Source of the DNA: Acidimicrobiaceae bacterium | GTDB taxonomy: Bacteria > Actinomycetota > Acidimicrobiia > Acidimicrobiales > RAAP-2 | DNA: 5,825 bases | Direction: 5' to 3' | Assembly: GCA_003157945.1 (NCBI GenBank) | Contig: PMFY01000396.1 | Coordinates: 1-5,825, forward strand | Shown here: piece after piece, positions 1 to 4,148 of the stretch | Layout: every line of letters starts with the position of its first letter | How positions within the stretch are numbered: position 1 is the stretch's first letter | Notes under the pieces: generated by a model | The model's database searches: none | What the model was told of the DNA's origin: nothing | Seen by the model: only the letters and a program-made list of their open reading frames with translations | Position numbers and translations under genes: made by a program

Positions 1-62
1 CGGACCGACTCGGAGATGCAGTCGAGGATCTGCTTCCGCTTGGTGCTCAGTACCTGGGCCAT
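1..62 (-). CDS. lexA: LexA SOS repressor, N-terminal fragment
   Basis: Only the first 20 codons and two bases of the next are in the window; the gene runs off the left edge. The start ATG is complementary to 60-62, and the peptide begins MAQVLSTKRKQILDCISESV followed by Arg. The segment LSTKRKQILDCISESVR resembles the first helix of the LexA winged-helix domain (family pattern: L-T-x-R-Q-x-x-I-L-x-F-I-x-x-x-x-R). A strong ribosome site, GGAGGG, sits 5 bases upstream. The identity is supported mainly by context: four LexA-type boxes lie directly upstream, and the divergent LysM and nrdR genes match the mycobacterial lexA neighbourhood. LexA represses SOS genes until RecA filaments trigger its self-cleavage. 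The cleavage site and Ser/Lys dyad lie outside the window, so they cannot be checked. Another small HTH protein is possible but less likely. Confidence 0.82.
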   Translation of the reverse strand, partial: MAQVLSTKRKQILDCISESV

Positions 63-84: not shown

Positions 85-95
85 GTGTCACACCC
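85..95 (+). repeat. GTGTCACACCC direct repeat, copy 1
   Basis: An 11-base direct repeat whose other copy is at 255-265. The core GTGTCACAC is an odd-centred palindrome. The two copies flank the whole set of four LexA boxes, and this one lies in the predicted lexA leader. Its function is unknown; it could be a second regulator's site or chance. Confidence 0.5.
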
Positions 96-100
96 TCGTG

Positions 101-114
101 CGAACGTCTGTTTG
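101..114. promoter_or_regulatory. LexA (SOS) box 1, lexA side
   Basis: Reads CGAACGTCTGTTTG. The left half CGAAC is perfect; the right half GTTTG has one change from the actinobacterial consensus CGAAC-N4-GTTCG. The outer bases G100 and C115 extend the symmetry. It sits over the predicted lexA transcription start, so bound LexA would block its own gene. Confidence 0.8.
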
Positions 115-118
115 CATG

Positions 119-147
119 AAAGTAGCCCTGGTGGGACGACAAAGCAA
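119..147 (-). promoter_or_regulatory. Probable lexA promoter (TTGCTT-17-TACTTT)
   Basis: On the minus strand TTGCTT (147-142) and TACTTT (124-119) are separated by exactly 17 bases, fitting a housekeeping sigma -35/-10 pair. Transcription would start near 112 and leave a leader of about 50 bases. LexA box 2 (145-158) overlaps the -35 element, and LexA box 1 (101-114) covers the predicted start point. This is the geometry expected for autorepression. The elements were picked by eye and the -35 is imperfect. Confidence 0.6.
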
Positions 148-158
148 ACATCTGTTCG
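145..158. promoter_or_regulatory. LexA (SOS) box 2, lexA side
   Basis: Reads CAAACATCTGTTCG. The right half GTTCG is perfect and the left half has one change. It overlaps the predicted lexA -35 element. The degenerate half faces box 1, a mirror image of box 1's own degenerate half. Confidence 0.8.
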
Positions 159-167
159 AAGAATCCA

Positions 168-197
168 TTGACACCGAACAGGTGTTCGTGGTGGGAT
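168..197 (+). promoter_or_regulatory. Probable promoter of the LysM-nrdR-deacetylase-dinB operon
   Basis: A perfect TTGACA (168-173) is followed after 18 bases by TGGGAT (192-197), a weak -10 that keeps the first T and the final AT. The predicted start is near 204. LexA box 3 fills the spacer and box 4 covers the early transcribed region, so the promoter should be shut off without DNA damage. The -35 is convincing; the -10 is not, and a different start point is possible. Confidence 0.55.
175..188. promoter_or_regulatory. LexA (SOS) box 3, LysM side, perfect palindrome
   Basis: Reads CGAACAGGTGTTCG, both half-sites perfect. It lies immediately after the TTGACA -35 element (168-173), inside the spacer of the rightward promoter, so bound LexA should exclude RNA polymerase. 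Confidence 0.88.
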
Positions 198-207
198 GTC
201 GCCATGG

Positions 208-221
208 CGAACAGAGGTTCG
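208..221. promoter_or_regulatory. LexA (SOS) box 4, LysM side, perfect palindrome
   Basis: Reads CGAACAGAGGTTCG, both half-sites perfect. It lies just downstream of the predicted start point of the rightward transcript. Its centre is 33 bases from that of box 3, about three helical turns, so the two LexA dimers could lie on the same DNA face. Confidence 0.86.
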
Positions 222-254: not shown

Positions 255-265
255 GTGTCACACCC
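255..265 (+). repeat. GTGTCACACCC direct repeat, copy 2
   Basis: Second exact copy of the 11-base element at 85-95, in the leader of the rightward operon. Including G254, GGTGTCACACC is a full odd-centred palindrome here. Confidence 0.5.
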
Positions 266-313
266 GTCGCCTACAACGTTCCGCATGACGGATCCGACGA
301 CACGGTCGACCAC

Positions 314-845: not shown

Positions 846-1340
846 GTGGGCACTAGCCTCGACTCCGTGCGTTGTCCCTGGTGCCTGGCCGACGACGATC
901 GGGTCGTGGATTCGAGGGTGGCGGAGGACGGAGCTGCCATCCGTCGCCGTCGCGAGTGCTCCGGGTGTGGGCATCGCTACACCACGTTCGAGCGGATCGA
1001 CGAGATCCCGCTCATCGTCGTCAAGCGGTCCGGTATCCGCCAGCCGTTCGACCGGGCCAAGCTCATCGACGGCCTGCGAGCGGCAACGAAGAACCGGCCG
1101 GTCACCGAGGACCAGCTCGAGGTCGTCGCCAGGGACGTGGAGGACGAGCTCCGGGAGACGGGTTGGGAGTCGACCTCCGAGCAGGTGGGCCTGGCCGTGC
1201 TCGAATACCTGCGCGTCGTCGACGAGGTGGCCTACCTCCGGTTCGCCAGCGTCTACAAGGGATTCGAGGGTGTCGACGACTTCCGCCGCGAGGTGGGGCT
1301 CCTCACGAAGACCACGGCGCCGAAGCGTCCCGGTGCCTGA
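846..1340 (+). CDS. nrdR: NrdR, ribonucleotide reductase transcriptional repressor
   Basis: A 164-residue protein from GTG 846. The N-terminal zinc ribbon has its four cysteines at C10, C13, C38 and C41 (RCPWC and CSGCGHRYTTFER), with the family signature RRRREC just before the second pair. An ATP-cone follows at about 54-144 (IPLIVVKRSGIRQPFDRAK through YLRFASVYKGFEGVDDF). NrdR senses ATP/dATP through this cone and represses ribonucleotide reductase operons by binding NrdR boxes, thereby tuning dNTP supply. The usual length is 150-160 residues. A start at GTG 867 would give 157 residues and the textbook MRCPWC opening, while the ribosome site favours 846; both may be used. The stop is three bases before the next gene. 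No ribonucleotide reductase gene lies in the window, so its targets are elsewhere. No NrdR box was found nearby. Confidence 0.97.
   Translation: MGTSLDSVRCPWCLADDDRVVDSRVAEDGAAIRRRRECSGCGHRYTTFERIDEIPLIVVKRSGIRQPFDRAKLIDGLRAATKNRPVTEDQLEVVARDVEDELRETGWESTSEQVGLAVLEYLRVVDEVAYLRFASVYKGFEGVDDFRREVGLLTKTTAPKRPGA
854..859 (+). promoter_or_regulatory. Possible internal -10 (TAGCCT) for a leaderless nrdR transcript
   Basis: TAGCCT fits the actinobacterial TANNNT -10 pattern and ends seven bases before GTG 867, the codon that would give the canonical NrdR start MRCPWC. This spacing is typical of leaderless transcripts. There is no good -35, so the call is tentative. Confidence 0.35.
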
Positions 1341-1343
1341 CGC

Positions 1344-2054
1344 GTGGCCGAGCTCCTGACCGAGGTGCCGGGGGTCGCCCTGGCCATCTACGCCCACCCG
1401 GACGATCCGGACGTGTCCTGCGGCGGCACCCTGGCCGCATGGGCCGCAGCCGGATGCCAGGTGCACACCCTGATCTGCACCGACGGGGGGAAGGGCACGG
1501 CCGATCCGTCACGTGATGCGGCCGACCTCGTGCGGGACCGTGCCGCGGAGGCGGCGTCCGCCGCCGCCGCCCTCGGGATCCAGGGCCAGGAGCACCTGGG
1601 CTTTCCGGATGGTGGCCTCACCGATGACGAGACCTTCCGCGGCACGCTGGTGGCCGTGGTCCGTCGCCTCCGTCCGGACGTCGTGCTGTGTCCCGACCCC
1701 ACCGCCGTGTTCTTCGGGCAGGACTACTTCAACCACCGGGACCACCGGATCACGGGGTTCGCCACCCTCGACGCCGTGGCGCCCGCGGCGGCCATGCCCC
1801 TCTACTTCCCCGATGCGGGCCCGGCCCACCAGGTGTCGACCGTGCTGTTGTCGGGAACCCTCGAACCGGACGTGTGGGTGGACATCTCGACGACCGTCGA
1901 CCGCAAGGGTGAGGCCGTCGCCTGCCACCGCAGCCAGTTCCCCGACGGCGAAGAATGGGCCGGCACGGCCGTCCGGCTGGCGGCGGAGGACGCGGGTCGC
2001 CAGGCCGGGGTGCCGTGTGCCGAGGGGTTCCGGAGACTGCGCCTCGGGGGGTGA
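1344..2054 (+). CDS. PIG-L/LmbE-family zinc-dependent deacetylase
   Basis: A 236-residue protein, GTG start three bases after nrdR, with no clear ribosome site, so probably translationally coupled. The N terminus VALAIYAHPDD carries the family zinc motif AHPDD at 17-21. By analogy with mycobacterial MshB, His18 and Asp21 bind zinc and Asp20 is the general base. The second motif HRDH (131-134) supplies the remaining zinc His, most likely His134. Other family features are the segment CTDGGKGTADP (45-55) and HRSQF (195-199). The family removes acetyl groups from GlcNAc-linked substrates, as in mycothiol (MshB, Mca), bacillithiol (BshB) or GlcNAc-phosphatidylinositol. The length is close to the short BshB-type members and well below MshB or Mca (roughly 290-300). 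The substrate cannot be assigned. It ends in a 4-base overlap with dinB, tying it to the DNA-repair operon. Confidence 0.92.
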   Translation: MAELLTEVPGVALAIYAHPDDPDVSCGGTLAAWAAAGCQVHTLICTDGGKGTADPSRDAADLVRDRAAEAASAAAALGIQGQEHLGFPDGGLTDDETFRGTLVAVVRRLRPDVVLCPDPTAVFFGQDYFNHRDHRITGFATLDAVAPAAAMPLYFPDAGPAHQVSTVLLSGTLEPDVWVDISTTVDRKGEAVACHRSQFPDGEEWAGTAVRLAAEDAGRQAGVPCAEGFRRLRLGG

Positions 2055-3773: not shown

Positions 3774-4148
3774 GTGCCGCTCTCTGAGCACGAACAGAGG
3801 ATCCTGCACGAGCTGGAGCAGTCCCTCTACCAGGAAGATCCTGACTTCGCCGAGCGGGTGCGCTCGGAGACCGTCTACCGCCACGCCGGCCGGTACTGCA
3901 TCTGGTCGGCCCTGGTCTTCGTAGCTGCACTGGTCTTCATGTTCTTCACGTTCGCCTCCAACCTGGCGCTCGGCTTCGTCGGCGTCGTCATCATGTTCCT
4001 GTCGGGGGTCGTGTTCGCCAACAACGCCCGGCGGATGGGCAAGGCCGGGATCGACGACCTGTCCCGATCCCTCCACACCCGCAGTATCAACAATCCGGTC
4101 CACGATCCCCGTGACTGGATCCGTGGGCGCTTCCACCGCGACGACTGA
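3774..4148 (+). CDS. DUF3040 small membrane protein
   Basis: A 124-residue protein with GTG start; GGAGGGG at 3759-3765 is its ribosome site, about 8 bases upstream. The opening MPLSEHEQRILHELEQSLYQ followed by EDPDFA is the hallmark of the actinobacterial DUF3040 family. Residues 1-37 are charged and amphipathic. Two hydrophobic segments follow, about 41-59 (YCIWSALVFVAALVFMFFT) and about 63-83 (NLALGFVGVVIMFLSGVVF), forming a helical hairpin with a very short turn. A basic, soluble C-terminal tail runs to 124. Both ends are probably cytoplasmic. The function is unknown, although its presence is characteristic of Actinobacteria. The tail is overlapped by the start of the downstream kinase gene, so the two are likely co-expressed. 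Confidence 0.93.
   Translation: MPLSEHEQRILHELEQSLYQEDPDFAERVRSETVYRHAGRYCIWSALVFVAALVFMFFTFASNLALGFVGVVIMFLSGVVFANNARRMGKAGIDDLSRSLHTRSINNPVHDPRDWIRGRFHRDD

What the first reader, a model, noticed from the sequence alone, without database searches (positions are those of the whole stretch)
101..221. Four LexA boxes packed into 121 bases between lexA and the divergent LysM operon
Boxes at 101-114, 145-158, 175-188 and 208-221 all fit CGAAC-N4-GTTCG with at most one change. Centre spacings are 44, 30 and 33 bases. Most SOS promoters carry one or two boxes; four shared between lexA and a four-gene operon suggests cooperative or looped repression and a sharp damage threshold.
Basis: partly seen in the sequence, partly recalled or inferred. 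Interest (0 to 1): 0.72.

Follow-up and report, generated by a model that had tools for sequence, protein, structure and literature searches.

The report
Four damage-repressor sites, two promoters
Four repressor-binding sites sit between the DNA-damage repressor gene lexA and a probable cell-division brake gene; comparison with relatives suggests two sites for each of two back-to-back promoters, one of them built into lexA's own promoter, so the array is a conserved and largely ordinary damage switch with one unusual detail.

Summary
In detail: four CGAAC-N4-GTTCG boxes (two exact, two with one change); no shuffle gave more than two in 121 bp. The array is conserved: 15 of 17 distinct order-level loci and 16 of 22 class-level loci have four boxes.

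A looped or cooperative array is not supported. Across the class, box-to-box spacings vary without clear helical phase. What stays fixed is each box's place in a promoter. Box 2's odd base supplies TTG of lexA's -35: TANNNT lies exactly 17 bp away in 16/17, 18/19 and 21/21 class loci (the last set box-selected) and in 42 of 53 phylum loci with that asymmetry. TTGAC begins 6-8 bases before a box in 56 of 60 class loci. So boxes 1+2 most likely serve lexA, 3+4 the LysM gene.

'Four-gene operon' is incomplete: nrdR has its own conserved promoter-like hexamer (47 of 49). A PafBC-like element precedes LysM in 22 of 60 class loci. The box 2 result offers a simple alternative to a published puzzle, half-motifs in actinobacterial lexA promoters (PMC2248561). 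No binding or expression was measured.

The parts
3..62 (-). 5' end of lexA (start codon at 60-62)
   Evidence: 100% identical over 20 codons to LexA of L002; that LexA matches PDB LexA chains
101..114 (.). LexA box 1, CGAACGTCTGTTTG; predicted to overlap the lexA start of transcription
   Evidence: lies just past the predicted lexA -10; the start position is inference
119..124 (-). predicted lexA -10, TACTTT
   Evidence: TANNNT exactly 17 bp from the box-2 TTG hexamer in 16/17 (A), 18/19 (B), 21/21 (C, box-selected) class loci
142..147 (-). predicted lexA -35, TTGCTT, overlapping box 2
   Evidence: sequence
145..158 (.). LexA box 2, CAAACATCTGTTCG (in the lexA sense CGAAC-N4-GTTTG)
   Evidence: same asymmetry in 53 of 83 phylum lexA upstream regions
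168..173 (+). predicted -35 of the LysM promoter P1, TTGACA
   Evidence: TTGAC begins 6-8 bases before a box in 56 of 60 distinct class loci, 21 of them box-selected
175..188 (.). LexA box 3, CGAACAGGTGTTCG, between -35 and -10 of P1
192..197 (+). candidate weak -10 of P1, TGGGAT (18 bp spacer)
   Evidence: TNNN[AC]T at spacer 18 in 25 and at spacer 17 in 10 of 56 loci; this pattern was chosen after viewing the alignment
208..221 (.). LexA box 4, CGAACAGAGGTTCG, predicted just downstream of the P1 start
256..277 (+). candidate PafBC-type promoter P2: TGTCACACCC, then TACAAC 16 bases on
   Evidence: TGTCACACC 29 copies on the + strand, 0 on the - strand, 0.125 expected from mononucleotide shuffles, in 60 class loci; the window's hexamer ends in C, not T
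86..107 (+). second TGTCACACCC copy whose +16 hexamer (GAACGT) lies in box 1
   Evidence: also in L001, L002, L003, L006 and L019
329..787 (+). LysM protein with a hydrophobic stretch; probable SOS cell-division suppressor
   Evidence: LysM 25 bits, cutoff 20.9; YneA model 24 bits, below its cutoff of 60
854..859 (+). candidate nrdR -10, TAGCCT (leaderless-type promoter)
   Evidence: TANNNT starting 11-14 nt before the nrdR start in 47 of 49 distinct loci
867..1340 (+). nrdR (GTG start at 867)
   Evidence: TIGR00244 167.6 bits, cutoff 124.65
1344..2054 (+). PIG-L family deacetylase
   Evidence: PF02585, 104.6 bits
2051..3514 (+). dinB, DNA polymerase IV
   Evidence: NF002882 398.6 bits, cutoff 389

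Best explanation
The region is a divergent SOS promoter pair repressed by LexA at two operators each. For lexA, box 2 overlaps the -35 (its off-consensus base supplies TTG) and box 1 covers the predicted transcription start. For the LysM gene, box 3 fills the space between a TTGACA -35 and a weak -10, and box 4 lies just past the predicted start. LexA dimers most simply exclude RNA polymerase (boxes 2, 3) and block opening or early elongation (boxes 1, 4). Damage removes LexA and releases both promoters: lexA resets the system and the LysM protein is expected to delay division. nrdR, the PIG-L gene and dinB get read-through plus a separate nrdR promoter without LexA boxes. Shown: motif, conservation, fixed promoter geometry. 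Inferred: LexA binding, steric repression, transcription starts, function of the LysM protein.
For: Box cluster beyond chance. Four boxes in 15 of 17 order-level and 16 of 22 class-level loci not chosen by boxes. TANNNT at exactly 17 bp from the box-2 TTG hexamer in 16/17, 18/19, 21/21 (box-selected) class loci and 42/53 phylum loci, all spacers 8-29 having been tried. TTGAC 6-8 bases before a box in 56/60 class loci. Box number tends to follow promoters: 17 of 26 phylum lexA loci have one box, and of the three with three boxes (L109, L117, L128) two have a LysM gene found beside lexA. Single exact boxes at ruvC, imuA' and a DEDD exonuclease gene in relatives.
Against: No binding, footprint or expression data. 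The LysM -10 is weak and was defined after seeing the alignment. Box 1 is not always in the same place: 17, 24 or 40-45 bp from box 2 in set B, and L015 lacks it. L036, L042 and L044 lack the CAAAC box; L042 has no box. L112 has a LysM match beside lexA but a single box in the stretch scanned, and L109 has three boxes without a LysM match, both against box number following promoters. 11 of 83 phylum loci have an exact symmetric box and no GTTTG box, none with the 17-bp -10, and 6 have no box. A generic sigma-70 scan of 1-400 found no promoter.
Confidence: 0.83

Rival explanations
1. The four boxes form one cooperative or looped repression complex that gives a sharp damage threshold.
For: Among close relatives spacing is almost constant: 12 of 17 distinct set A loci have exactly 44/30/33 (window, L001-L003, L005-L012), phase R 0.82-0.95. 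Boxes 2-3 and 3-4 are about three helical turns apart in the window.
Against: In class set B the spacings are 17-45, 22-69 and 23-34 with R 0.28, 0.30 and 0.43, while distances to promoter elements stay fixed. 121 bp is short for a loop (general knowledge, not from a call). R 0.43 for box 3-4 is borderline, so local cooperation there is open.
Confidence: 0.1
2. Boxes 1 and 2 are degenerate, decaying sites; only boxes 3 and 4 are functional.
For: Each has one departure from the consensus.
Against: The departures themselves are conserved: CAAAC-N4-GTTCG in 17/17 and 19/22 class and 23/26 phylum loci, with a -10 at a fixed distance.
Confidence: 0.04
3. The LysM operon is mainly controlled by PafBC from P2, and LexA control of P1 is secondary.
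For: TGTCACACC downstream of the last box in 22 of 60 class loci; the same element before recA and uvrB in relatives; tandem WYL genes in 5 of 5 relatives searched, one pair matched to PafBC structures; spacing as in the published P1 consensus tTGTCRgtg-8 nt-TannnT (PMC5656591, passage seen).
Against: The exact 9-mer is not found there in 38 of 60 class loci (variants were not counted); in the window the -10 is TACAAC, not TANNNT; xAxxxT at offset 16 in only 12 of 23 copies; TTGAC plus box is far more conserved (56 of 60). NCBIfam names neither WYL protein.
Confidence: 0.12

Closest known systems
lexA promoters with two LexA operators: E. coli (PMC9210283, abstract in search listing) and Streptomyces venezuelae lexA1/lexA2 (PMC9380542, section 8 read)
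   Same: Two LexA sites at the lexA promoter; S. venezuelae consensus tCGAAC-N4-GNNCGa
   Different: Here the lexA pair is back to back with a second pair for a LysM gene
lexA beside an SOS division-inhibitor gene: yneA (Bacillus), Rv2719c/chiZ (mycobacteria), divS (Corynebacterium); the gene arrangements are recalled, not taken from a call
   Same: lexA next to an SOS-induced small protein of division control
   Different: The YneA model matched below its cutoff (24 of 60 bits); here nrdR, a PIG-L gene and dinB follow
Firmicutes lexA promoters with 1 to 3 boxes (PMC2248561, section 14 read)
   Same: Several boxes of the same family upstream of lexA
   Different: Symmetric palindromes there; the actinobacterial box is lopsided, which our data tie to the -35
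RecA-NDp / P1 promoter activated by PafBC (PMC5656591, passages; PMC11804915, passages)
   Same: TGTCR, 16 bases to a -10-like hexamer, also found here before recA
   Different: CAC instead of gtg after TGTCR; the window's -10 is TACAAC

Membership tests
Gram-positive/actinobacterial LexA operator (SOS/Cheo box) | CGAAC-N4-GTTCG palindrome, at most one change | tested here: met
Gram-positive/actinobacterial LexA operator (SOS/Cheo box) | conserved upstream of lexA in relatives | tested here: met
Gram-positive/actinobacterial LexA operator (SOS/Cheo box) | same motif at other repair genes in the genome | tested here: met
   met in relatives only: ruvC, imuA', DEDD exonuclease; the window's own genome is not held
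Gram-positive/actinobacterial LexA operator (SOS/Cheo box) | bound by LexA and released on DNA damage | not testable with these tools
   needs gel shift or ChIP
YneA/DivS/ChiZ-type SOS division suppressor (LysM gene) | LysM domain | tested here: met
   PF01476 25 bits, cutoff 20.9
YneA/DivS/ChiZ-type SOS division suppressor (LysM gene) | match to the YneA equivalog model | tested here: not met
   24 bits, cutoff 60; so 'works like', not filed as YneA
YneA/DivS/ChiZ-type SOS division suppressor (LysM gene) | single membrane segment and division arrest | not tested
   a hydrophobic stretch is visible in the translation; arrest needs an experiment
PafBC (RecA-NDp/P1) promoter | TGTCR with TANNNT 16 bases on | tested here: inconclusive
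   TGTCA and spacing met, but the hexamer TACAAC lacks the final T; xAxxxT at offset 16 in 12 of 23 class copies
PafBC (RecA-NDp/P1) promoter | pafB and pafC present in the genome | tested here: inconclusive
   tandem WYL genes in 5 of 5 relatives, one pair checked against PDB; own genome not held

The most novel reading that the evidence does not exclude
Throughout the phylum (taken to be Actinomycetota) the main lexA operator is lopsided because one half-site doubles as the -35 hexamer, which ties repressor affinity to promoter strength. This, rather than monomeric LexA or drifting specificity, explains the half-motif conservation reported in 2008. In Acidimicrobiia the neighbouring LysM gene also reads two damage sensors, LexA at P1 and ssDNA-activated PafBC at P2.
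Probability: 0.5. Interest if true: 0.58.

Novelty: new variant of a known kind. Interest (0 to 1): 0.42.

Why it matters
It turns a box count into a promoter map that can be tested base by base. It offers a plain explanation (operator half-site equals -35) for why actinobacterial lexA boxes look like half-motifs, a question raised in PMC2248561. It also suggests that a little-studied bacterial class may wire a division brake to both known actinobacterial damage sensors.

Tried and rejected
Box count in the window's own genome: not possible, none is held; done in relatives instead. The one-mismatch count in G005 gave 301 sites against 81 for the reversed pattern, but the list was cut, so clusters could not be counted exhaustively. 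Helical phasing as a sign of looping: rejected for the class, though it holds among close kin. In one search the TTGAC-to-box distance was limited to 6-8 by the script itself, so that row is not used as evidence, which tried 1-30, is. A generic sigma-70 scan of 1-400 found no promoter; the promoters here rest on conservation. The box-like CGAACAGAGGATCC at 3791-3804 lies in the DUF3040 coding sequence with two changes and was set aside. The box-pair searches (55 of 395 class genomes; 33 of 296 phylum genomes; reversed control 0 in both) demand exact patterns and so undercount; set C, drawn, is box-selected and is not used as evidence for conservation of boxes 2 and 3. In one search any GTTTG-type box was preferred and otherwise the box nearest lexA was measured, so '0 of 11' for symmetric boxes is a comparison, not a strict control. 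Paper searches bearing on a lexA/LysM/nrdR array or on the -35 overlap: no listed title or abstract start describes it; most of the listed papers were not opened and most subscription papers are not held, so absence from print is not claimed.

Full report
WHAT IS THERE. The window has four matches to CGAAC-N4-GTTCG with at most one change, at 101, 145, 175 and 208, and no others. In 500 dinucleotide shuffles the mean was 0.35 and the largest cluster in 121 bp was 2, once. lexA starts at 62 on the minus strand. On the plus strand follow a LysM protein (329-787), nrdR, a PIG-L family gene and dinB. The window has no own genome in the collection. Its nearest named relatives are mostly Acidimicrobiales or Acidimicrobiaceae metagenome-assembled genomes (NrdR up to 95% identical).

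CONSERVATION. Nineteen nrdR-linked loci were found. L004 ends before the region. Set A (window plus L001-L019; 20 given, L004 without lexA, L013 and L014 dropped as near-duplicates of L012, 17 used) has four boxes within 300 nt of lexA in 15 and three in 2. One of the two is L015, which lacks box 1; the other count is due to the 300-nt limit, because L016 has a fourth box just beyond it. Exactly 44/30/33 is seen in 12 of the 17; L016, L017 and L018 differ by 1-4 bases, and L019 is arranged differently. The departures in boxes 1 and 2 are conserved too. Set B, the 30 best nrdR-HMM loci of 164 matching genomes among 198 of the class, was not chosen by boxes: 7 lack a lexA start in the locus, 1 is a duplicate, and of 22 used 16 have four boxes, 2 five, 2 three, 1 two and 1 none. 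So four boxes are the norm in the class loci examined.

BOX 2 IS THE lexA -35. In the lexA sense box 2 reads CGAAC-N4-GTTTG. The changed base makes TTG. Exactly 17 bp from the hexamer beginning with that TTG there is TANNNT in 16 of 17 (A), 18 of 19 (B) and 21 of 21 (C, box-selected) loci that have the CAAAC box; spacers 8-29 were tried and the only other hit was one set A locus at 18 bp. In the phylum of the relative G002, the 30 loci with the best LexA scores among 149 genomes gave 26 usable ones (3 short, 1 duplicate), 23 with the CAAAC box and 18 of those with the 17-bp -10. I then fetched 60 more upstream regions down the same score list, leaving out G002 and G028. Of 86 regions 3 were duplicates; of 83, 53 have the GTTTG type, 11 an exact symmetric box and no GTTTG box, 13 another one-change box, 6 none. 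TANNNT at 17 bp: 42 of 53, 0 of 11, 1 of 13; every other spacing in the GTTTG group has 6 or fewer. At least 10 of the 83 come from genomes also in the class lists. A 2008 study found half-motifs more conserved than the palindrome in actinobacterial lexA promoters and asked whether LexA binds as a monomer or its specificity is shifting (PMC2248561, section 14 read). Overlap with the -35 is a simpler reading of at least part of this; I did not test Corynebacterium, where that study saw the large motif lost.

BOXES 3 AND 4 BELONG TO THE LysM PROMOTER. TTGAC begins 6-8 bases before a box in 56 of 60 distinct class loci, 21 of the 60 being box-selected. Within 30 bases upstream of boxes the distances are 6 or 7 in all 17 cases of set A, and 6-8 in 19 of 22 of set B. 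A clear TANNNT -10 is rare (3 of 56 at 17 bp, 2 at 18); a looser TNNN[AC]T, chosen after viewing the sequences, peaks at 18 bp (25) and 17 bp (10). The next box begins 30-43 bases after TTGAC in 53 of 56 loci, near or past the expected start.

NO SIGN OF A FIXED ARRAY. In set A spacings are nearly constant (R 0.82-0.95). In set B they are 17-45 (box 1-2, n 17), 22-69 (2-3, n 17) and 23-34 (3-4, n 16), with phase R 0.28, 0.30 and 0.43. Position in the promoter, more than box-to-box distance, is what is kept. In phylum set D, 17 of 26 lexA regions have one box. L117 and L128, with a LysM gene found beside lexA, have three; but L112, also with a LysM match, shows one, and L109 has three without a LysM match. 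In relatives, exact boxes stand alone at ruvC, imuA' and a DEDD exonuclease gene. Of 32 exact boxes outside the lexA region in 30 fetched stretches of G002, G003 and G005, 4 have a one-change box within 200 bp and none has more than one such neighbour; the genes by most of these boxes were not identified and many boxes may be chance.

OPERON AND SECOND PROMOTERS. The nrdR start is GTG 867. TANNNT starts 11-14 bases upstream in 47 of 49 distinct loci (L037 dropped as a duplicate), the pattern of a leaderless promoter. So nrdR, the PIG-L gene and dinB need not depend on the LexA promoter. Upstream of LysM lies TGTCACACCC with TACAAC 16 bases on. In 60 class loci TGTCACACC occurs 29 times on the plus strand and never on the minus strand, with 0.125 expected; 22 loci have it downstream of the last box, 23 copies, with xAxxxT at offset 16 in 12 and a T at the hexamer's end in 18. 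The longer pattern TGTCACACCC-N7-A-N3-T occurs 14 times in five relatives' genomes (11 forward, 3 reverse), reversed control 0; three hits are the lexA region, one is recA and one uvrB; the others were not tied to a repair gene, though one lies directly beside a LexA box (L089). The published P1/RecA-NDp consensus is tTGTCRgtg-8 nt-TannnT (PMC5656591, passage), the same spacing. Tandem WYL genes occur in 5 of 5 relatives; one pair matches the PafB and PafC chains of solved structures (E 2e-24 and 3e-28), while NCBIfam names neither. The window's hexamer does not end in T, so this is a candidate, not a member.

VERDICT. A real, conserved, divergent promoter pair with LexA boxes. The count of four is best explained by two promoters with two operators each. 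The noteworthy part is that the lexA operator's lopsidedness coincides with its -35.

Noticed in passing
854-859: TAGCCT 13 bases before the nrdR GTG; TANNNT 11-14 bases upstream in 47 of 49 distinct loci, suggesting a conserved leaderless nrdR promoter.
   Followed up: yes
256-277 and 86-107: Two TGTCACACCC elements resembling the PafBC -26 element; the +16 hexamer of the upstream copy lies inside LexA box 1.
   Followed up: partly
L086 around 1501: A relative's recA has a LexA box followed by TGTCACACCC and TAGGGT at +16; from memory, this resembles the two-promoter recA of mycobacteria.
   Followed up: partly
L141 and L146, around 1501-1507: In ruvC and imuA' of a relative the start codon ATG lies inside the exact LexA box, which would fit a leaderless mRNA whose operator covers its own first codon.
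   Followed up: no
L021, L047, L076, L077, L079 and L023, L027, L035, L061: In other class lineages the second lexA box sits 17 bp (CGATC form) or 24 bp (CGTAC form) from box 2; in the CGTAC form it contains the lexA -10, TACGNT.
   Followed up: partly
L023, L072, L073: Some loci carry a fifth box whose start is 15 bp after that of box 4, so the two nearly abut.
   Followed up: no
4111-4148: The ROK kinase frame, read from its first start codon, overlaps the end of the DUF3040 gene; its true start is probably later.
   Followed up: no
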